Below, one piece after another: positions 11,254-45,027 of a DNA stretch of 60,899 nt (positions within the stretch are counted from its first letter, which is position 1; each line of letters starts with the position of its first letter). The position numbers and the translations under genes are program-made. The notes below the pieces were generated by a model. That model searched no databases. It had not been told where the DNA came from and worked only from the letters and a program-made list of their open reading frames with translations. Source of the stretch: Spongospora subterranea (Eukaryota; Endomyxa; Phytomyxea; Plasmodiophorida; Plasmodiophoridae). The stretch is taken from NCBI GenBank assembly GCA_900404475.1, contig OUQQ01000039.1, positions 1 to 60,899 on the forward strand, in the 5' to 3' direction.

Positions 11254-12744
11254 TCACTGACAAACTGTAAAGAACAGCTCAGCTCGCTTTGACTTGGATG
11301 TATTACAAATCGAGTAGGAATTATCATCTGGTACAACGAACGAATCTCCTTTGCTTAATTTGAGTTCCGTCCTGTTAACCGTAACTACGAGGCAATTCCG
11401 CTGGCAAGCGTTCACGAAATAAACTTCCGCCCCGGCAGCTTTCTCTTTATACTTGGTCCCAAGAGGAGGAATTTGAAGGACACCAGCAGAAACATTGCCT
11501 ACCGCATATAGCTTGCATGCCAGAGGTTCAACTTCTTGGCCTTGCTTAGTGATTCCCTTCGGTACTTTAGTTTTCAAACGGACTAACGAATGATCAGACG
11601 ACCTCGCAGCTATCACTTGACTACGCTCTTTGCCGTTTTTGCGAATAACGACCTCCCCGGAAAGCGGAACAATCGCCTCATCTTCTGAATTTTCATCGTC
11701 ACTGACTAAAGACTTGGGTCGCCGCCGCTTCTGACGGTGATGACGAGACGGGACAATGGGGGTAGGAACGTGTCTGATCACCGCCTTTTCACTATCGATG
11801 CTAAATAGGCCGCCAGCACCTTGCTTATAGTTGATCTGCTCGCATTCGAAGAAATTGACTGGTTTACATCTGGCCCTGCCACTGCGCCGAATACCACCAG
11901 CCTTATCAAAATCTTGCCCGATCCCGGTTTCTTGCGCCTTCTCAACAAGCATCAGCGTTTGGCGACGTTTTTTCTTAGGCAGACGTTTCTGCTGCTTATC
12001 CTGGGTGACTGGTTTCTGCACTAAACTAGATTTCATCTTCCGTGACGACAGGTCTGTTTCCACTTTTTCAGCCTCTATCTCGTCCAAAAACGAAGCCTCT
12101 TCTCCAAAATCTTGATGTTGATCGTCAGAATCTGGCTCACCTTGTTGTTGTGATTTCGCTTTCTGTTTTTTGACGGTGGAATTTCCACTAGGTTTCGGCT
12201 TCTCAATTCTTCGAACAGTCGGGTTTGCTTCTCTGGGACTTCGCTGGGTATTTTTCCTAGTAAACAGAAAATCAGTTGTCTTTTGGTTCCGATGCTGTGC
12301 GGTGCTTGGTTCGCCGCTTGTATTCTCTGAAGAACCTGAGCTCCTGTCATCATTTCGGCCGTCAGAATCGTCATCCGAAGTCTCCCTGTCCTCCTCGCCC
12401 TCCTGAAACTCAAGACGTTTGATTGCTTCATCACTGCCAAGCTCCGGTTGAGCAGTCGACACCGAGGCCGGGGACAGAGGAAACAACGACGATTTCCTAC
12501 GTAGGTTTCCAAGATCTTCTTGCTCCCCATCACTATCAGACTTCAAAGCCTGCTCAACATCGTCAAACCCCTGTAGGTCTTTGACCGTGTTGATCGGCAG
12601 GCGCACGCCGGTATGCCGTCCCAAAACACCGATATTGCGCGATGATATTGGTCGGCCAGTGCCGGTCCGGCGCTTCTGGTGTTCTGGCCGATCCTTGCGG
12701 CTGACGAAGGGCGGCAAGGACTGGTCCGCTGTCGTCGTGGCCAT
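11254..12744 (-). CDS. MIF2: CENP-C / Mif2 centromere protein with C-terminal cupin
   Basis: Single-exon gene of 496 codons if translation starts at MATTTADQ; an upstream in-frame ATG would add 32 residues that look like leader. It encodes the inner-kinetochore protein that binds the CENP-A nucleosome and recruits the outer kinetochore. Visible parts: an N-terminal Mif2-like block (LGRHTGVRLPINTVKDLQGF, residues about 41-60); a long acidic/basic disordered middle; the CENP-C motif at about 285-307 (RRSGRARCKPVNFFECE); and a dimerisation cupin at the end (residues about 415-496). In the CENP-C motif the usual aromatic Tyr-Trp pair is Phe-Phe, so the Trp that packs on the CENP-A tail is replaced. 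The lack of introns contrasts with its neighbours. It is divergent from REX4. Confidence 0.85.
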   Translation of the reverse strand: MATTTADQSLPPFVSRKDRPEHQKRRTGTGRPISSRNIGVLGRHTGVRLPINTVKDLQGFDDVEQALKSDSDGEQEDLGNLRRKSSLFPLSPASVSTAQPELGSDEAIKRLEFQEGEEDRETSDDDSDGRNDDRSSGSSENTSGEPSTAQHRNQKTTDFLFTRKNTQRSPREANPTVRRIEKPKPSGNSTVKKQKAKSQQQGEPDSDDQHQDFGEEASFLDEIEAEKVETDLSSRKMKSSLVQKPVTQDKQQKRLPKKKRRQTLMLVEKAQETGIGQDFDKAGGIRRSGRARCKPVNFFECEQINYKQGAGGLFSIDSEKAVIRHVPTPIVPSRHHRQKRRRPKSLVSDDENSEDEAIVPLSGEVVIRKNGKERSQVIAARSSDHSLVRLKTKVPKGITKQGQEVEPLACKLYAVGNVSAGVLQIPPLGTKYKEKAAGAEVYFVNACQRNCLVVTVNRTELKLSKGDSFVVPDDNSYSICNTSKSKRAELFFTVCQ

Positions 12745-13209
12745 TATATTATCAGAGTAAGATAATGTCAGACGAGGCATTCCCCTCTCTAGGAGGCCAC
12801 TCTCAACACACAACTGCAGACTGGTGTAGACTGACGACACACACCACTGACCCAGTTCGTGTCACGCATCAACAGTCCGCGCGGCACCCTCCCTTTCCCC
12901 ACTGTTCATGCCGAACGGTGCGCAGGGGGCTGCGTGTGGGACCTCCGACTCTCTGATTCGGAAATCGAATACGTTTCGACCGCTCGTTAATTCAATTTTA
13001 ACGCCATCGAAAATGGTCGTTTTTATATGCCCAAAAGATTTTCGCTTGTGGACGCTGATAAACCCCAGTTGCCCCGGTAGGTGTAGACTGTAGACTGCGC
13101 ATGTTAAGGTGCAGTTATCGCAACCCCTACCAAGATTTTTGCGCATTTTGATCAGTCAATCTGCGGGCGCAAATTTTTTCCTCATTCCTTCTGCCCTGGT
13201 CCAGGGATC
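12745..13209. promoter_or_regulatory. Divergent intergenic region between CENP-C and REX4
   Basis: This 465-bp gap separates two genes transcribed away from each other and must hold both promoters. I see no clear TATA box at a convincing distance. Short ORFs on both strands here have no domain character. Confidence 0.4.
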
Positions 13210-24766: not shown

Positions 24767-25624
24767 GACTGGATATTGCTTCTGATGATGGATAAAGTAT
24801 CTGTATGAATGAAACCAAAGGGTCGATCAGTGACGAATATTGAGGGAGTGGACTTCTAGAGTGGCGACAGTGACCGGTGACAGTGCATCTGACGTATCGT
24901 AATTCCCTGGACCACATCACCCCCTTTTACTGTACCAAATACGGGTCGATGATCGGACCAACATCAATGTGGGTGGCGACATGTTCAGGATCGGATCGAC
25001 CTCTACAATAAATATAGTGCGAGAATTGCATCAAAAAGCACCGAACGATTTTCGTGATTGTCAGCATTGAACATTTTGTATTTGCTTGAACTTTTGCGTA
25101 GGAGTGCACTATCGGTGCAGATGTAGCCGATGCATTGTGTCAATTCCGATTGACATCCTAAACAATCAACGCCAAAACCTGGTGCGATCACCGGCACTTT
25201 TCAAGAGATTATCGAATCGCTATCGCTTATGGGACGCTTTTTACTTGAAGCGGGATTAGATCACTCGTCATGCAAAATTCGATACGGGACCAAAATTTGC
25301 TGCAAGCGGTTGGCGCCAAAAAAAGACAAGTTGTGGTCGGAGTTTGGAGTTCACGGACTCCGAGCTGACTCGAAGCCGGACTCGGAGAGGGTCCGAATGG
25401 TAACGTGGTGGACTGACTGAGAGTTGACCTGGCTGTCGTCGACAGTCCTGATCTTCCCGACTGGGACATTTATTGCACTCCCCCATTCAGGTCATCTGAC
25501 CTTTTGAGATGGGAGCTATTCGCGGATCAAGATGCAACACGACGATCGCATTAACGAATATGGTATTTTACCAGTATGACCGTCGATTTCAGTCTGTTTA
25601 TGTCGTTTCGTTGGGAATCAGGTG
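24767..25624. other. Intergenic between divergent CARMIL-GAP and MFS genes
   Basis: About 860 bp with several 60-90 codon ORFs on both strands, none with domain character. An in-frame stop at 25577 upstream of the MFS ATG limits the N-terminus unless an unseen exon exists. The segment 25340-25400 is rich in GGACTCCGA/GGAGTTC-like short repeats. No RNA gene seen. Confidence 0.3.
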
Positions 25625-26901
25625 ATGTTTGTTGTCGCATTCCAATTTTCTGGTCTTACGTCCCTACTTCCTCCCCTTGTTAAACGTGTTCTATCGTCAT
25701 CGTATGGAGAAGAATATATGAAGGATCATTCTGGTAAATATATCGCTGGGTTATCGGCTGCGGCGAGTTTTTTCGGTGCAATATCAAATCCATTCTGGGG
25801 ACGCGTTTCCGATAATTATGGACGACGACCTGTTTTGTTGATATCTTTACTCGCTTCATCAGTATGCATGGCGATATTCTCAGTTGCTTCGATATTTTCG
25901 GTTCTTCTAGCTGCTCGAATCGGGAACGGGTTGTTTGATGCCTCTATGTTCATATCGAAAGTAATCACCGGGGATGTCAGCAATTCTGCAAATAGCAGCA
26001 GAAATTATGCGACTCTTTACATGTTTTTCGCCATCTCTGAAACCGTATGCCCGTTCGCCGTGTCCTTCTTTCAGGAAATTGCCGGCTGGCAAGCGTTCGG
26101 ACCTTGCATCATCTCGTCAGCTTTAATATTTATTGTGTTCCTCAACGTATATTATTTCATGGAAGAGCCTTCGGCAAGGGAGATCGTGTCAGAGCAAACT
26201 CGAGGTCTTTCAATCAAAATGATTCTCTCGAGAAGGACGACAGCAATTCCAGTTTTGCTCTATGGCACTTTAGCGATGGTGCTTACTGGCTCCTCCGTTG
26301 TGACCTCGATGATCATTATCGAGCCCTTAGGTGGGCTTGGTTTGCCACTTAGCGCCATCGGTAAGCTATTCGCAATTCAAGGCGCTGCGTATATCGCTAG
26401 TCAAATGTTTATCTGCCCTGCTCTCATTCGTGCATTTGGTGCGTATTACCATTCTTCGGATTCCTGGCGTTTCACTGATAATTTTCATGTTCAGGAGCGG
26501 GAAAGATGTTTCTTTGTTCAGCGTGGTGTTTAGTGATCATTTTTCCATTCGCTATAGTACCTGGATATCTTCCTTACCCTTATCTGATAATGGCAGTGCA
26601 CATGGTCTCTAAAAACATAGCGTCGTCGATTGCTTTAACCGCTGCCACCGTTTTGATCAATGATTCATCGTCAGCGGACAATCGTGGATCCGTTGCCTCG
26701 GTTGCTCAATCAACGGCCGGTATCTTACGAACTCTAGGGCTGTTAGTTTTAGGAGAGATATACGACATATGTTTGCGACATGAGCGGCTATGGATTCCGT
26801 TCGCGCTTCTCGGTTTTTCCATGGCGATGACTGCAACAATGGCACATTTCATTGCTCCGCTGGAAGAAAAAGCACTGGGAGTTCAATGTGAATCGTCATG
26901 A
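25625..26901 (+). CDS. Major facilitator superfamily transporter (DHA1/tetracycline-transporter-like)
   Basis: Two exons joined by a 56-nt intron (26439-26494, phase 1) give about 406 residues with about 12 hydrophobic segments. MFS motif A lies between helices 2 and 3 (GRVSDNYGRRPVLLIS). The paralogous position in the C-half is less conserved. The second half begins AGKMFLCSAWCLVI and ends ALGVQCESS. The family exports or imports small molecules by proton coupling, and the substrate cannot be told. The ATG at 25625 is the first after an in-frame stop. Convergent with the next gene, about 105 bp apart. Confidence 0.85.
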
Positions 26902-35849: not shown

Positions 35850-36450
35850 ATGGAGATTGAGGACGAAAGTTGCCCAATCTATCTCTTTGCGCCTCCATAC
35901 ATGAGTGCATCACATTTTTACAGGGCACAGGCATTGTATTTGAAATGCCAGGCTTTAGCACCTGAGAACATTCTTAACACAGGCGTGATCAGCTCATTCC
36001 GAGTTCCTGGGTGATTGTGTAGTATTGTTTCGCCTGAATCGCGTCAAAGAGCGCCAAGTCGACATGACGGGCGGCAGAATAGGCGGATATCGTATTCATA
36101 TTCACTTGAAATCATGAGTCGCTCAACTTGGTCCGGTCATGTGATCCGTCGATAAACATAGGACAACCCCTCGAAATCTCGATCTGATTGGGTCGACAAC
36201 AATAACCGGCTCTCTCACCCGCAGTGCCCTGTTAATGCCCGAAAACTGCTGCAATGGCTCCTGCTTCTACCGAAGCCTGTCGCTGTACCAGATCCCGCTA
36301 ATCTCCAGAGCGAAACCCCATATGCGGGCACTCTTTTTATATTGTCAATAGCGGTTGGACAGGACGGCGAATCTCGTAGCTATGGCACAGTTCCTGTTTG
36401 GCCATTTACCTCGGTCACAACGTCGTCATTCCACAAAGTCTACGCTGATT
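35850..36450 (+). CDS. Possible exons of an unidentified gene
   Basis: In the 35.6-36.7 kb gap, plus-strand open segments look coding. ATG at 35850 gives MEIEDESCPIYLFAPPYMSA then FYRAQALYLKCQALAPENIL. A segment at about 35998-36115 reads SEFLGDCVVLFRLNRVKERQ then MTGGRIGGYRIHIHLKS. A segment from an AG at about 36162 to 36452 runs about 95 codons (KLLQWLLLLPKPVAVPDPAN; GQDGESRSYGTVPVWPF). The last two have no ATG, so they would have to be internal exons. I do not recognise the family. Confidence 0.25.
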
Positions 36451-36773
36451 GACAAATCCTGTTGTTTCAGATGAAGGTTCGGTAATCCAAACCGGTTAGC
36501 TCTCTCTCCATATTTCTCTCTTTAGTCGATCTATTTTCCACTCAACGACTTATCGCCATTCAGGTCAAGTAATCATGGTCGAACTCGCAATGGGCGGCTC
36601 TGACGTCAGCTTAACCAAAACTTGAAAAAAAAAAGGAAAAAACCACTATCGATTAGGTGTCTTCAGGTTTCAAAACAATCAACATTTTATGGCAGTTCGT
36701 CCGGTCCCTCTCCAGGGAGTCCCAGATCAGAACGATAATACGATCGCCCCGAGACTCCAGACCCACCCATCTC

Positions 36774-37661
36774 TCAGAATATCACTCCTGCGCGAATCAT
36801 GTCCCCGGCGAACTGTTGGGCCCATTGTCATTCACGTGTTGGTTTTTTCTCAGAACATTGATCGATTGGGGATTACCTTGGTCTCCGGACAGGTGATGTT
36901 GGGTTTCCGGATCACGATCTCATCGGCGCCCGGCTTGAACCATCCGACGTGCTGCGACGTCAGGATCGGTTTCCGGAACTTCTCTTGTGGCGAATACTTC
37001 AGTCGTCGGTTGCGATAGCCGTCGGTCGTCAGCTCCTTCAAGCTGCGATATTCCACCTGTCATTGTTGACGATCATCGCCCCTTTCTCTGGTTTGGTTTG
37101 CGACAGTTCTTACAGGTGATTCCTCAGCTTTGGCTCTCACCTCGTTCTGCATCGCGATCCCGGTCCTCTCCCAATCATCGGCGTCGAACGTCCCGTCACG
37201 CTCCTACACGATATCAGGGGCGTTGCCCACGCGGTTGTCTGAAAATCACCCCGAACCTGAAGATGGTGTAGCGCCAGGTCGATCTCGGACGGCGACGCCT
37301 CGAACCCATAGAGAGCCCTCAAGCAACGGCGAACATGATCGTAGTCGACTGGGAGGCGGTCGGATTTGACGGCGGCGGCATGGCGAACGGCGTCGAACGC
37401 GAGGCGGAATCGATCCCTGGGCACGTGGCTGATGTTGAGCGATTTGCAGGTGAAGGCTGAGAACGGGTTCTGAGGCCCCAGAGCTGTTAACCCAAAGAAC
37501 ATCACGTCATCAACGACAACACCCTCGAATGTCCAACTGTGATCGATCAGTGGTACCGATCTAATCCCGACCCCGCCCCTGATTTTCGCCCTAACACCGC
37601 CTCGGTTGTTGCTCGGGTCTGTGCCCATAACAGCGGGACGAATCGCGATCTGATTCGTCAA
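36774..37661 (-). CDS. Small axonemal (microtubule inner protein-like) protein with EF-like segment
   Basis: Minus-strand exons: an upstream exon ends LPVDYDHVRRCLRALYGFEA then SEIDLALHHLQ; the next is ERDGTFDADDWERTGIAMQNE. A third exon reads VEYRSLKELTTDGYRNRRLK then YSPQEKFRKPILTSQHVGWF and RKPNITCPETK. After an intron of about 66 nt the last exon is FAGDMIRAGVIF, ending at 36774. The closing pattern (TSxxxGW...P...S/CxET+FA..M...G.F) is what I associate with ciliary microtubule inner proteins such as the FAM183/CFAP144 group. The helix-loop segments resemble degenerate EF-hands (DGTFDADDW). The true start is not fixed and could be any Met in the first exon. Confidence 0.42.
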
Positions 37662-38142
37662 CGGGCGTTGATCGACGTTTCAACACCGAGAGTGGGACAC
37701 GAGCGAGTCGACGATTACCGGATCCCACCGAAATCCTCATCAATATCACGATCGTGTATGACGGTGCGACCCACGATTTGATCCGTTTGACGTCAATGGG
37801 TGTCGATCGGCGACCGTTATCGTGGGAATCCTCTGTTCTGGGGTGTTGATTGCCCGATAATCGCCATCGCTAGGTCACCACGAAACCGACCCAAACCTCA
37901 AACGTGTCTTCCTGTGCTCCAAATCAACACATCACATTGAGACCCCGTTGTAATCTCAGTGCTCGGAACAACTCATTCTACATTTTCGCTAATAAACAAA
38001 CATGTGCAAGGATCACGGCCACAATCAGTCTGGTCGGGCAATCGACACAACGTGGAATAACGGCAATGAGATCCGACCGGTTCGGGGTCGCTGGGAGCGA
38101 ATCAGGGTTTTCGCCCAAGATATTTCGGTGCTGTGGCGATAG
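37662..38142. other. Divergent intergenic region
   Basis: About 480 bp between the axonemal-like gene (-) and the ankyrin gene (+). ORFs here overlap both strands and show no domains. It should hold both promoters. Confidence 0.25.
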
Positions 38143-41100
38143 ATGGAGGCAGCTAGGGCGGTGGCCGCCCGGGCCATCAAGAAGGCCAACGAGACGGAGC
38201 GCGAGACGCCCAGTCGCCTGATCTACGACGCCGTCAGCAAGGGCGAGCTCGAGCGCGTTCGCGAACTGATCGTCCGGTTCGCCAACGCCAACTACCAGGA
38301 GGTACTTACTCCTCGTGGTCGTCGCGTCGTCGTTCGCGGAGCTGACACAACCCGGTTCAGAGGCACCGGATCTCGTTGCGAACGCCAATCCATCAGGCGG
38401 CCGAGCTCGGGTTCCTCGATATCTGCAAGGTGCTGTGTGAGGAAGCCCAAGCCAGTATCAGCACGATCGACAAGGTGGAACACACACGACCGGCGCGTCG
38501 TCGTTCACCCGATCTCTCGCTCTCTCATCTCTCTGACTCCCTTCCGACGATAGGACGGCAACACCCCATTTCATCTGGCCGCCGCCCGAGGGCACTTCGA
38601 CATCGTCAAGTATTTCCAGCAGCGATACGATCCCGATCCGACGTTGCGGAATGCGGTAAGCGCGCGTCGTTGGCGTTAGCGAATCGCGAGACATTATTTC
38701 TGAAAACGGATCCAGCGGAGCTATACGGCGTTCCATCTGGCCGCGTTCGGCGGGCACCTCGAGGTGCTGAAGTTCCTGGACGAAGACGCCGGCGTTGATC
38801 CGCACGCGGAGGACCAGTTCTGGAATACGGCGGCGCATCAGGCCGCATCCCGAGGGCATCTTCCCGTGTTGAAGTACCTGTGCTCGATGGCGAAACTCAA
38901 CCCGGAGTCGCTCAACAGATGGAAAAGGTCAGAGATGGCCAAGGGAGATTCACCACATCGTCTCTAAATCCTTCGTCATCCGAATTCTGATCGAAAACTG
39001 AAATCCCAATGTTCTTCGCTTATTCGTTTTTTTATTTTTTTGTTTATCTGGTGTTGATTTTCTTGAACATCACGAAATCGTGGTAGGATTCTGCAGCGAA
39101 AACAACGAAACGATGGTGGTTTGTTTGTTCCCCTCGATTGATGACTGTGTTGGGCAGAACGCCATTACACCAGGCAGCGGCCCATGGCCACACCGATATC
39201 GCCCGATACCTGATCAAGCAGTGCCATGTCGACCCAACCTGTTCCGGTCTGGACGGCTGTACGCCATTGCACCTGGCCGTCAGCAATGGCCATCTCGACC
39301 TCACCCAGTTCCTCGTCGAGTCGATCGGGGTCAGCCGAACCACCACCAACACGAACATCCCCCTCGTCAACAAAACGTCGTTTCCCTGATGCCGTTCGCT
39401 AGGTTCCAACGAATCCCAAGAACGTCAATGGCGATACTCCGATCCATTGTGCTGCATTCTCTGGCCAGGCGAATATCTGCAGGTATCTGGTCGAGAAAGG
39501 CCATTGCCAGGTCAATTACAAGTAAGGGATAAGGAGACGCGTGTTGTGGTTCGCCCACGAACCCTGAGATATCGGATTCTAGGAACAAGAACGGGGATAC
39601 GCCGATCATCATCGCGGCGATATGGAATCAGCAGGAGGTGCTGCGATATCTGGTGGAAGAGGCGAAAGCGGATCCCTGTTTGCGGAACGAGGTCACCGAT
39701 CCCGCTCTGTTGTTGTTAGGGGCGGGGCTGGAGCTGATCTTGATCATGTTCAGATGGGGTTCACGGCGATGCACATGGCCGCCCGGGAATGGAACCAGGA
39801 AGTCTGCGAATACATCTGTAAAGTCGCACCGGAATGTGCTCGAATACGCGATAACGTCAGCAACGAATTCGGCGCCGTTTCTCGTTCCCCTTCTGACAAA
39901 TGTGTTTCCCCCCGAAACAGAAAGGGTTAACCCCATTGATGGTCGTTCTGAACAAATGGGGACAGACCAAGGTCAACCGAATGTTCCTTCACAAGGTCGG
40001 GTTGACCTGGACGGGGGCCATGGCGCTATGTCCTGATCGCGGTGTCTGTGTTTCCAGGAAGGGTATTCGCCATTCCACGTGGCGTGCGAGAAAGGGTTCG
40101 AGGACATGGTCCGGTACCTGTTGATCTGCGCCAAGGATTATGGCGACCTGATCCACACACCCGGCGCCGTATGGTCCATTGCCCCATGTTCGCCCCGCCC
40201 GGTTGGCTCAATCATGTGCGTGTTTGCGCCGTCAGAATGGCGACACGCCGTTGATCGCCGTGATCGAACGGGACCACATCCGGCTGATCGAGCTGCTGCT
40301 GCAGAAGGGCGCCGACGTCAACTTCCGCTCGGCCAACGGGAACACGCCGCTGCTGACGGCGATCCGCGAACAGAATATGAACCTGGTCAAGGTCCTGATC
40401 GCCAGCGACGCCAAAATCAACTACCCGACCGACGGCGATCACACCCCGTTGACCTTGGCGTGTTCGATCGGCAATATGGACTTCGTCAACCTATTGCTTA
40501 AGCAGGGCGCCCAGCTCGAGCTCCCCAATCGGGTTGGCCCGATCCTCGCCCGTGTCGCCGTACTGACGATCGTGCTGTGTTTGATCGGCAGAACGGGGAG
40601 ACGCCGTTGGTAATGGCCTGTAAGATGAGGAACATGGACCTGATATTGGCGTTATTAGAATACGGATCGCAGATCAATTACCCAGTTCACGTCAGTATAA
40701 TCATCACATCTCCACACAATCACCAAACGCCACAACGGAAACAAACGCATTTCCTCCGTTGTTGTTGCCGTTGTCGTCGTTTTCGATCGCTGATCACGAA
40801 AACATTGGCCGTTCAGACCAAGTTCACCCCATTGATAGCGGCGTGTATGTTCGGGGAGGTCGAGATGGTGTCGTTATTGCTATCGAAGGGCGCCGTTATC
40901 GATATGCCCAATGTGGTAAGGGAACAATCGCCACCGATTTTCGCCTCCACCGACCCGCGCGATCAGAAACGGGGAACGCCCTTGGCGGCGGCGTCGAAAC
41001 GGGGTCAGGCCGATATCGTCCGCCTGTTATTGAACCGAATGATGAACCAGAACCTTTCCGTTGACGTATCTGGTATTACTGGCCACACCCCCGTGATGAA

Positions 41101-43796
41101 AGCGGCATTGCATGGACACACCGACGTCGTCAGGTTCGGCCAAAATCCGATCGGATCCGATGGCGCGACTGACCGAGGTCGTTCAGAATGCTGGTCGATC
41201 AGGGCGCGTCGATCTACCTGCCGGACGGGAAAGGGAACACGCCGGCGATCGAGGCGGCTAGACGGGAGCACGACCAGGTCCTGGAGTTCCTGGTCGGACA
41301 AGGGGCCGATATCGATATGCCCGGGGAGAACGGCAGAACGGCCAACGAGTACGCCGAGCGGGTGCCGCGATTGCGCCGGGCGATGGAGAACGGCCTGGCC
41401 CGGTTCCGGGCCACGATCAGTGGACCAATCCAGTCCCTGCAACATCGCGGCTATCTGAACCAGTCCGATCCCGTTCAGGACGGGTTCTATTTCTCGTCGG
41501 AGGTCGTCCCCGTTCGCGGCACCGCCGACAACCTGAAATGGGGGAAGCTGTTGGACCCGCGTTGTTTCCCGATCGGCAGTTTGGATGGAATTATCATCGC
41601 GTTCGACAGCCGTCGCGACTCGTTATTGCGGTTCGAACGCGATGATTTCCACTGTCCAATGATTCAACTCAGATTCGGTTGTCGATTTGGATTTTCCCTC
41701 AGGGCGATGATCGGGCGCGCACAGGACCTGATCCGGACGTTCCCGAACGCCAGGGCGCGCGCGTCGGCGCTGGCCATGCTCACGGCGAACGAATGCGGCG
41801 GGACTGCGATCATGGCCAAGCGGGAGTTGGCCAGAACGCAGCAGGAACGGCAGCGATCCCGATCGGGTCGCGATATTCTCAACGTCGGCGACCTGTTGCC
41901 CGGATTCGGGATCTCGCGCCTCAGGAGCGTCGCCTTCAAATTCCTGCTGGGGAAGGTAAACGCGCGAGAAATCGGCGATCTCCTGGAACGATCGGGGAAC
42001 ACCAGATTTTGACGCTGGGATTCACGTTACATGGGCAGATGGCGACAGAAGGGGGTTACACTGTGGATTGCAGGGTGGTGTCGAGACCTAGCTCAGGAAG
42101 TGGGTATGATCGGGTCGGCGACCCATGGCCGTCGTCGTTCACCTGGGCCGAGATCGCGTTCGATGGCGATGGGCCGTATTTCGTGGTGGACCTGATGCAC
42201 GTCCCCGGGCGCCTGATGTTCGAAAACGGGCGCGACGCCGCCCGGTATCGATCCGGACTGGTCGATCACGATCAGGATCCGATCCCGCCCTTGGCTCATA
42301 TCCAGCAGGTCAGTGGTCTTTCGACATGGGATCCGATCGCGACCGACAATCTGCACCATCAGGTGGCGGTTCGGGACGAGATCGTTCGCGTCGATAAGGA
42401 AGCGGCGATCGCGGCGAAACCGGCGCGGAAGAAGGCGACCAAAGTTGGGAGACGGCGACGGAAGAGCAGTGTCGTGTTCGCCGGGAAGCTCAAGAGCCGA
42501 CCGTCGACGGATTCCGCCGCCTCCGTCTTGGAGAACATATCGGAGACCAGCGTCGAGCACAATGACGAACTCCATGGACATATCACCGCCGTTCAGGGAC
42601 TCGAAAAAGTGAACGGATCAGATTCCGATAACGGTACGAAACGGGCGCTCGTTTGTGTCGTCGTGGAATTTGTGACGATGAGTTCCCGATCTTAGACGAG
42701 TTCGAGCCGGTGCTGAAACGCCACAGCGTCGGCGAGGATATCCCGCCGGGGATCGTTCAGCCCGAGACCATGGCCGCCCGGCTACAAGTCGAGGAGGAGG
42801 AGAACGCGCTGGCGATCGGTGGGCGCGTTGATCGCTGGGGGATCTATCAGCACGGGAACGTGGTCATGACGGCGTACCCGGTCCCAGTCTACTTCAACGC
42901 CTCGCAGAAGGAGACGGCCATGACCTGGTTCAAGGACGATATTCAGGTGGAATCACCATTCGTCGCCGTGTTGCGCCCCCCCGTTCTCATCCAGATGTCG
43001 ATCAGGTTTACGAGACGCTACGACATCGCTGTATCGATCGGCCGATGGCGATCGACTATTCCACACGATCGATTGTGCGGAGACGCAATGACGACCTCAT
43101 CCGCCTCGACGAATACGTTCGCGATCGGCAGGCGAACTTGGGTAGGGGCTAACGGGATTCCTAAACACCATCGCCAAACGTTGACGGTTTTCAGGCGCCG
43201 ACGCCAAGCTGTCGATTGTGCTCCAAATCGCCGAGACGATGGAGTATCTTCACACATTGGCGGCGCCGATTGTCCATGGGCGGTTGAGGATCAAGGAGAT
43301 CTTCATCTCGGGGTCAACGGAGGACGACGACGACCCGGCAGCCGCCGCCGCCTCTCAGCCCATCGTCCACTTCCTCGACGTCGGTCTCCCTCGCCGGGTC
43401 GACCCCATCCTCAAACAGAACCCGCTCGATGGCGCCGCCGTCTACTACCCGCCGGAACGGCTGGCGCTATCGGAGCCAGAAGGGGCAACGGGCGTCGATA
43501 CATTGCCCGCCGACGTCTACGCGTTCGGGGTCGTGGCCGTGTTCGTGGCCAGCGGTGTCGTGCCCTGGGCCGATTTCCAGGTTCGCGACATCCAGGAGTT
43601 CTATCGGGAGAAGCGTTCCCCGACGCTGCCCGAAGACGCGGCCGCCGGGCAGGTCCGTTCGTGGGCGCCCGTGATTCAGCAGATATTCGCCCACGATCCT
43701 GATGATCGCCCGTCATTCACTCAGGTCATTCGCCTGTTCCAGCAGCATGTTGGATCGGCGATCGCCCCAGCGCCGACCATTAAATCTTCAACATAA
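38143..43796 (+). CDS. Ankyrin-repeat / EDR1-domain / pseudokinase protein, multi-exon
   Basis: About 16-18 exons with introns of about 50-210 nt. After MEAARAVAARAIKKAN come about 14 ankyrin repeats (RTPIHQAAELGFLDICKVL; NTPFHLAAARGHFDIVKYF; RTPLHQAAAHGHTDIARYL; HTPLTLACSIGNMDFVNLLL; GNTPAIEAARREHDQVLEFL) to about 41.36 kb. An EDR1/CTR1-type domain follows (GISRLRSVAFKFLLGK at 41.91 kb, then FVVDLMHVPGRLMF at 42.18 kb). A basic/serine linker comes next, then a TKL-like kinase fold (43.2-43.8 kb) with ADVYAFGVVAVF and PPERLA. The kinase looks dead: no Gly-rich loop, no VAIK lysine, and HRD is HGR (VHGRLRIKEIFI), though DVG remains at DFG. In the EDR1 domain the Cys of GxCRHR is Ser and the following His is missing. 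The gene is strikingly GC-rich against its neighbours. It ends about 115 bp from the convergent nitrilase. Partner and pathway unknown. Confidence 0.75.
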
Positions 43797-43911
43797 AAAC
43801 AATGATGGATTGATCAATATCGTGTGGGAGAATATGAAATCGGTCAGTGAATCGAAGTTGTTGTGTATTTCGCGGAAGAAACGGGTTGTTCATGGTTGTC
43901 GAGATCAGATG

Positions 43912-44709
43912 TTAAACTACTCTACTTGCCAAAGCCGGTATTTTGTTGCGAACGGCGTCGATCGCCTCACAGTCAAAGTCGGCGGCGATGACGCCCTCGC
44001 CCAGCGCAAGTTCATCGATGATCTGACCCCAAGGGCCGACGATCATGGAATGGCCATGGGTTCGGCGTCCATTGGCATGTGTGCCGCCTTGGGCTGGGGC
44101 GATTACATAGCACTGGTTCTCGATCGCACGTGCGCGAACCAGGACCTCCCAATGGGCCTGTCCTGTCTCGACGGTGAACGCCGACGGCGCTACGATGATC
44201 TTGAACTCACCCAACGACCGGAATAGCTCTGGGAACCGGAGGTCGTAGCAGATTGAGAGCGCGACACCGCCGATTGTTGGCAGGTCGGCTTTGACAAATC
44301 CGCGACCGGGTGCGATAGTTCTTGATTCATTGAGCGACTCGTTCGATCCGTGGAAAGTGAAAAGATGAACTTTGTGATAATGGGCGATTTCATTGCCATG
44401 TGGGTCGTAGACGAATGTCGTGTTGTGGACACGATCGGGGTTGGGCGACTCAGTGGGGATTGAACCACCGAACAGGAAAATCTGATGGGTTCGCGCCATC
44501 TCCGACATGAACGCCCTGAACGAACTGGACTGTTTCGCCATGGCGACGTGAGCCAGCGGTTCATCGCTCCCAAAGGACACCCAAAACTCGGGCAATGCGA
44601 TCAATGTGGAACCCAGCCCAACGGCATACCCGATCAGTCGGCGAACTGAATCCATGTTGGCGATGGGATCCGGCGACGACACCAGCTGAATGGCGCTACA
44701 TTTAACCAT
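43912..44709 (-). CDS. Nitrilase-superfamily amidase (Nit1/Nit2-like)
   Basis: Single exon, 265 codons from the ATG at 44709 (MVKCSAIQLVSSPD), the canonical family start; the frame stays open upstream to 44946 but that part is not family-like. The Glu-Lys-Cys catalytic triad is intact: Glu41 in ALPEFW, Lys113 in HYHKVHLF, Cys154 in SICYDLRFPE. The late family motifs VETGQAHWEVLVRARAIENQ and HGHSMIVGPWG are present. Nit1/Nit2 enzymes hydrolyse amides such as deaminated glutathione or alpha-ketoglutaramate; which one this is cannot be told from motifs alone. Length is normal for the family. Confidence 0.9.
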   Translation of the reverse strand: MVKCSAIQLVSSPDPIANMDSVRRLIGYAVGLGSTLIALPEFWVSFGSDEPLAHVAMAKQSSSFRAFMSEMARTHQIFLFGGSIPTESPNPDRVHNTTFVYDPHGNEIAHYHKVHLFTFHGSNESLNESRTIAPGRGFVKADLPTIGGVALSICYDLRFPELFRSLGEFKIIVAPSAFTVETGQAHWEVLVRARAIENQCYVIAPAQGGTHANGRRTHGHSMIVGPWGQIIDELALGEGVIAADFDCEAIDAVRNKIPALASRVV

Positions 44710-45027
44710 TGCTGTCTGAATGACCTGATGGCGCCACACGCGCAACACACTGTACCTGTGACATTGGTGCGTGACTGTATGAGGGGCAGTGCGTTGTGCC
44801 CCACCACTGACAGGGGCTCTCCTCTGGGACTCCCCAGTGTACATTAACGAACTGCGAACTGCAACATGGAGAGATGGCAACTTTTGGGAACTGCAAAGGC
44901 GGAAATCGGTGATTGGCATTGGCTCACGTTGCTTTTTTTGTTTCAAATGAGAAACAATTGCCTGAATTTGTTCGCCCGTGATCGATTCTTGTCAATGAAA
45001 ATGTGATTGTAAAAATACAAGAATTAT

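What the first reader, a model, noticed from the sequence alone, without database searches (positions are those of the whole stretch)
38143..43796. Ankyrin-EDR1-pseudokinase: a plant-like EDR1/kinase pairing with both enzymatic parts apparently dead
The protein combines about 14 ankyrin repeats, an EDR1/CTR1-type domain and a TKL-like kinase fold. EDR1 + kinase is the layout of plant CTR1/EDR1 kinases; ankyrin repeats in front are not part of it. HRD reads HGR, the N-lobe lysine and Gly loop are absent, and the EDR1 Cys/His positions are replaced, while structural parts (VDLMHVPG, DVYAFGV, PPE) are kept. That pattern suggests a scaffold kept under selection rather than decay.
Basis: partly seen in the sequence, partly recalled or inferred. 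Interest (0 to 1): 0.75.

Follow-up and report, generated by a model that had tools for sequence, protein, structure and literature searches.

The report
Ankyrin-EDR1-pseudokinase scaffold gene in Spongospora
A potato-scab protist gene encodes one long protein that joins about twenty ankyrin repeats to a plant- and protist-type EDR1 domain and a kinase fold that has lost its catalytic residues, probably a signalling scaffold rather than an enzyme.

Summary
Window 38143-43796 (+) reads as one gene of 20 exons and 19 GT-AG introns, 1408 aa (1416 with an alternative donor), without stop or frameshift. Pfam confirms ankyrin repeats, EDR1/CTR1/ARMC3 (33.6 bits, cut-off 27) and a TKL-type kinase (62 bits, cut-off 23). 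The catalytic loop reads IVHGRLRIKEIF where roco4 has IVHRDLRSPNIF: Asp and Asn are lost; DFG reads DVG. One exon carries both the last ankyrin repeat and the start of EDR1. The genome is Spongospora subterranea (Rhizaria) by a 463/463 aa EFL match.

Corrections: about 20 repeats, not 14; EDR1+kinase is also in protozoans (TgTKL1); ARMC3's EDR1-type domain is described as lacking catalytic residues; ankyrin + TKL pseudokinase is the ILK layout.

Most likely a non-catalytic scaffold. Expression, partners, orthologues and selection were not shown: two protein searches of limited sensitivity found no relative and the structure model failed. New variant of a known kind.

The parts
38143..43796 (+). 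whole gene, 20 exons (38143-38301, 38361-38474, 38554-38655, 38716-38927, 39158-39329, 39403-39521, 39583-39691, 39754-39855, 39921-39971 [or -39995], 40058-40168, 40236-40532, 40592-40690, 40817-40915, 40967-41133, 41187-41630, 41703-41955, 42006-42633, 42696-42946, 43006-43141, 43195-43796), 1408 or 1416 aa
   Evidence: open spliced frame, all introns GT-AG; in-frame stop just before ATG
38200..41388 (+). ankyrin solenoid, about 20 repeats (aa ~20-705), spliced
41187..41630 (+). exon 15: the last ankyrin repeat and the start of EDR1 in one uninterrupted exon (aa 639-785)
   Evidence: ORF 41173-42012 open
41446..42215 (+). EDR1/CTR1/ARMC3 peptidase-like domain; Pfam part aa 725-871 (41446-42008), then the motif FVVDLMHVPGRL (42180-42215) assigned by eye
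   Evidence: motif coordinates
41908..41940 (+). GISRLRSVAFK (aa 855-865): place of the recalled Cys-Arg-His-Arg motif, here without Cys and His
   Evidence: for coordinates; consensus recalled
42276..42727 (+). linker (aa 961-1090) with basic NLS-like run KKATKVGRRRRKSS (42429-42470)
   Evidence: NLS reading by eye
42800..43745 (+). TKL-type pseudokinase domain (aa ~1115-1392)
42947..43005 (+). 59-nt intron that accounts for the apparent frame break at the C7 run; it joins ...KDDIQ to VYETLRH and lets the Pfam kinase match begin at profile position 45 instead of 87
   Evidence: (candidate introns)
43269..43307 (+). catalytic loop IVHGRLRIKEIFI (HRD Asp to Arg, Asn to Glu)
43371..43397 (+). 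FLDVGLPRR, DFG position reads DVG

Best explanation
This is one intact, probably expressed gene of Spongospora subterranea for a large non-catalytic scaffold. Shown: the domain order is ankyrin solenoid, EDR1 domain, basic linker, then a TKL-type kinase fold lacking the catalytic Asp and Asn. Inferred: the ankyrin repeats grip one or more partners; EDR1, a papain-like fold that is probably dead, serves for docking (plant EDR1 protein binds the E3 ligases KEG and ATL1; that the EDR1 domain itself does this is my guess); the pseudokinase acts as an allosteric or docking module on an active kinase, in the manner recalled for ILK, KSR or MLKL; the basic linker may send it to the nucleus, where TgTKL1 is reported. 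It then works like a signalling scaffold rather than by phosphorylation or proteolysis.
For: Single open frame of 1408 codons over 20 exons. Ankyrin/EDR1 junction inside one exon. EDR1 and kinase over Pfam cut-offs. Catalytic Asp and Asn replaced while the DVG, PPE, DVYAFGV and DDRPSF elements remain. Third-position G+C is similar in all parts: 0.77 ankyrin, 0.78 EDR1, 0.72 linker, 0.77 kinase, against 0.40-0.61 (median 0.46) in the 16 unmasked ORFs of 250 aa or more from 19 sampled stretches (3 of the 19 hold long runs of N). Its codon usage correlates with EFL + mitochondrial EF-Tu (r 0.54) and not with those 16 ORFs (r -0.08). The PDB sequence hits (124 at E<=0.01, 60 listed) include TKL pseudokinases by recall (MLKL, KSR) beside active kinases (roco4 first, RIPK2, CTR1, B-raf).
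Against: No transcript, orthologue or protein evidence was seen. Two protein searches found no relative (region 690-1408 at E<=0.001, 7988 candidates scored; region 700-960 at E<=10, 1555 candidates), so selection could not be measured. The structure model failed (mean pLDDT 33). The DFG Asp is kept, so nucleotide binding or odd catalysis is not excluded. Most of the listed PDB relatives are active kinases as I recall them. The high third-position G+C may be regional (introns 0.53, upstream flank 0.52-0.58, though the 115 bases downstream have 0.41) and not a sign of expression.
Confidence: 0.62

Rival explanations
1. The kinase is unconventional but active: it binds nucleotide through the kept DVG Asp and other residues and phosphorylates a partner.
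For: DVG keeps the Asp; a degenerate glycine-rich stretch GGRVDRWG stands near the loop position. Some plant ILKs phosphorylate in vitro (PMC5376563, passages).
Against: Both the catalytic-loop Asp and Asn are replaced and no N-lobe Lys is recognisable in the sequence.
Confidence: 0.13
2. It belongs to the expanded ankyrin proteins of gall-forming plasmodiophorids and is sent into the host cell.
For: Ankyrin proteins are the largest structural cluster in the P. brassicae (42) and S. subterranea (39) secretomes (PMC12503489, passages; see also PMC4471660, passages).
Against: The N-terminus MEAARAVAARAIKKANETERETP is charged and shows no signal peptide by eye (no predictor was run); EDR1 and kinase are not mentioned for those proteins in the passages I saw.
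Confidence: 0.08
3. Gene-model artefact: two neighbouring genes (ankyrin-EDR1 and a kinase) joined in silico through intron 42634-42695.
For: Exon 17 would run to a stop at 42693-42695 if that intron were retained, and no transcript was seen.
Against: The intron is only 62 nt, too little for a gene boundary (inference); phase-correct GT-AG; EDR1+kinase is a known pairing in plants and protozoans.
Confidence: 0.07
4. A decaying pseudogene of a once active EDR1 kinase.
For: The kinase, and by recalled consensus the EDR1 domain, are degenerate at catalytic positions.
Against: 1408 codons without a stop or frameshift, 19 GT-AG introns, similar strong codon-position bias in all domains.
Confidence: 0.05

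Closest known systems
EDR1+kinase proteins of protists and plants (CTR1/EDR1 Raf-like kinases; Toxoplasma TgTKL1)
   Same: EDR1 domain followed by a TKL kinase domain; TgTKL1 also has putative NLS motifs and is nuclear
   Different: active kinases there (recalled); no ankyrin solenoid known to me in front (recalled)
Integrin-linked kinase (ILK), animal and plant
   Same: ankyrin repeats in front of a TKL-type kinase or pseudokinase (scaffold role recalled)
   Different: few repeats, no EDR1 domain (recalled)
ARMC3
   Same: helical repeats plus an EDR1-type papain-like domain described as lacking catalytic residues
   Different: armadillo instead of ankyrin repeats, no kinase domain (recalled)
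TNNI3K and other ankyrin-TKL kinases
   Same: ankyrin then TKL kinase (layout recalled; TNNI3K kinase is among the PDB hits)
   Different: active kinase, no EDR1 (recalled)

Membership tests
CTR1/EDR1-type EDR1-kinases | EDR1/CTR1/ARMC3 peptidase-like domain (PF14381) | tested here: met
   33.6 bits in the 1175-aa first part, 39.6 bits domain alone, cut-off 27
CTR1/EDR1-type EDR1-kinases | TKL kinase domain after EDR1 | tested here: met
   PF07714 62.2 bits, aa ~1156-1388
CTR1/EDR1-type EDR1-kinases | intact catalytic loop HRDxxxxN | tested here: not met
   HGRLRIKE
CTR1/EDR1-type EDR1-kinases | closer relationship to this clade than to other TKL kinases | not tested
   no EDR1-kinase sequences could be fetched; in PDB roco4 (33.7 bits) scores above CTR1 (27.2 bits)
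ILK | ankyrin repeats directly followed by a TKL pseudokinase | tested here: not met
   EDR1 domain and linker lie between
ARMC3 | armadillo repeats with an EDR1-type domain and no kinase (recalled) | tested here: not met
   repeats are ankyrin; kinase present
plasmodiophorid secreted ankyrin proteins | N-terminal signal peptide | tested here: inconclusive
   none seen by eye; no predictor available

The most novel reading that the evidence does not exclude
An ankyrin-EDR1-pseudokinase hub that is special to plasmodiophorids (or wider Rhizaria), in which a signalling pair usually built from an EDR1 domain and an active TKL kinase was turned into a purely non-catalytic, highly produced scaffold: an independent, ILK-like invention.
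Probability: 0.3. Interest if true: 0.55.

Novelty: new variant of a known kind. Interest (0 to 1): 0.4.

Why it matters
Little is known of what EDR1 domains do (so TgTKL1's authors, PMC5874906, passages), and they are usually studied in front of active kinases. A natural protein in which both parts look non-catalytic, fused to a long ankyrin solenoid, would show that the EDR1-kinase pair has a binding role that does not need catalysis, and would add Rhizaria to the plants and apicomplexans for which the pairing is named in the papers seen. It is also the only EDR1 match that an exon-by-exon search gave in this assembly, so it is a clean target for asking what EDR1 domains bind.

Tried and rejected
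Frameshift at the C7 run (42975-42982): rejected; of 15 phase-correct introns listed I chose 42947-43005 by eye (length and the helix-C motif LRH), and it gives a longer kinase match. Genome-wide search for other EDR1 genes: only this gene, sub-threshold as a single exon (18 bits, one candidate scored; introns split the domain, so absence elsewhere is weak). Paralogues: of 8 places matched by aa 685-1408 at E<=1, 6 are this gene and 2 are other places at E 0.07-0.08. Relatives: two protein searches empty (they need shared 5-residue words and 0.55-1.75 of the length, so fragments and distant orthologues are missed); viral contigs none (31 pattern matches, none confirmed); PDB nothing for EDR1 but one hit at E 0.95, read as chance. 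Structure model useless. 18S search of the genome did not complete; the organism was named by EFL instead. Paper searches that combined ankyrin and EDR1: (15 of 15,668 papers listed; 9 of 9; 0), with PF14381 (0); no listed title or abstract start describes this architecture, but the library is partial and one search was capped. Assembly paper not held. Kinase matches in NCBIfam are far under cut-off.

Full report
What is there. The stretch 38143-43796 on the + strand reads as one gene. A TAG in frame directly precedes the ATG at 38143, and a model of 20 exons and 19 GT-AG introns (50-230 nt) gives 1408 aa without a stop. The exons were chosen by eye so as to stay open, so the open frame alone is not proof. 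An alternative donor for intron 9 (39996 instead of 39972) adds 8 aa and makes the short repeat there more complete. An apparent frame break in the kinase N-lobe, beside a run of seven C, is explained by a 59-nt intron (42947-43005): it joins KDDIQ to VYETLRH, and the Pfam kinase match then begins at profile position 45 instead of 87.

Domains. My scan counts 18 ankyrin repeats and I read two more, weaker ones at aa 330-380, so about 20, not 14. Exon 15 (41187-41630) carries the last ankyrin repeat and the first 60 or so residues of the EDR1 match in one open frame, so this fusion does not depend on intron guesses. The EDR1-kinase join depends on one 62-nt intron (42634-42695).

Catalytic state. 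Aligned with roco4, the catalytic loop IVHRDLRSPNIF reads IVHGRLRIKEIF: the Asp and the Asn are lost; DFG reads DVG; the PPE, DVYAFGV and DDRPSF elements remain. No N-lobe lysine is recognisable; GGRVDRWG may be a remnant of the Gly loop. In EDR1, GISRLRS stands where I recall a Cys-Arg-His-Arg motif; the Pfam match stops at aa 871, and the VDLMHVPG motif is assigned by eye (the second half alone gives no Pfam hit). That the EDR1 domain is dead is therefore likely but not shown.

Organism. An EFL protein read from the same assembly (C349) is identical over 463 of 463 residues to a UniRef entry of Spongospora subterranea; the other 119 listed hits are at 75-91%. The taxonomy is Rhizaria, Endomyxa, Phytomyxea. 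The assembly has 20,588,268 bases in 679 contigs, and the window is the whole contig C247. The name rests on this one protein of another contig.

Is it maintained? The frame is intact and third-position G+C is 0.77, 0.78, 0.72 and 0.77 in ankyrin, EDR1, linker and kinase. The 16 unmasked ORFs of 250 aa or more in 19 sampled stretches (3 with long runs of N) have 0.40-0.61, median 0.46; EFL has 0.72 and mitochondrial EF-Tu 0.70 over the frame, 0.75 over the gene. Codon usage correlates with these two (r 0.54) and not with the 16 ORFs (r -0.08). That would suit strong expression, but the introns (0.53) and the upstream flank (0.52-0.58) are also G+C-rich, unlike the EFL flanks (0.45-0.48), while the short downstream flank is not (0.41); a regional effect is as good an account. 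No relative was found, so no rate test was possible.

What is known. EDR1 domains are often fused to PF07714 kinases and resemble C71/C93 peptidases; ARMC3 is described as having a papain-like domain that lacks catalytic residues (PMC10318531, passages). EDR1+kinase is reported for plants and protozoans, with TgTKL1 as example (PMC5874906, passages). Animal ILKs are called true pseudokinases and plant ILKs range from active to potential pseudokinases (PMC5376563, passages). Ankyrin proteins are expanded in gall-forming plasmodiophorids (PMC12503489 and PMC4471660, passages). The four paper searches that combined ankyrin and EDR1 listed no title or abstract start with this architecture; one search showed 15 of 15,668.

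Judgement. The elements are each known; the combination of a long ankyrin solenoid, EDR1 and a TKL pseudokinase was not found elsewhere here. The best reading is a non-catalytic scaffold that works like ILK or KSR (their roles recalled), and that belongs to the EDR1-kinase kind by layout but fails its catalytic criterion. Results against it: no expression evidence, empty relative searches, failed structure model, an EDR1 match that covers only profile positions 12-160 of 203.

Noticed in passing
37000-45000: G+C-rich block (0.51-0.61 in 500-base steps against 0.45 outside 36000-44200) covering the gene, its introns, its upstream flank and part of the neighbouring nitrilase gene; cause unknown (regional or expression-related).
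   Followed up: partly
43912-44991: Convergent carbon-nitrogen hydrolase (nitrilase) gene on the - strand, PF00795 161 bits, third-position G+C 0.64.
   Followed up: partly
11254-12861: CENP-C/Mif2-like ORF on the - strand (PF11699 42.9 bits over cut-off 29): a kinetochore protein in Phytomyxea.
   Followed up: no
25580-26533: Major facilitator transporter ORF on the + strand (PF07690 82 bits).
   Followed up: no
42414-42470: Basic run in the linker between EDR1 and kinase (KPARKKATKVGRRRRKSS), NLS-like by eye.
   Followed up: no
L021, G000:C229:18501-19148: Another kinase-like ORF of the same genome whose catalytic loop reads IVHLGLRIDN, without HRD.
   Followed up: no
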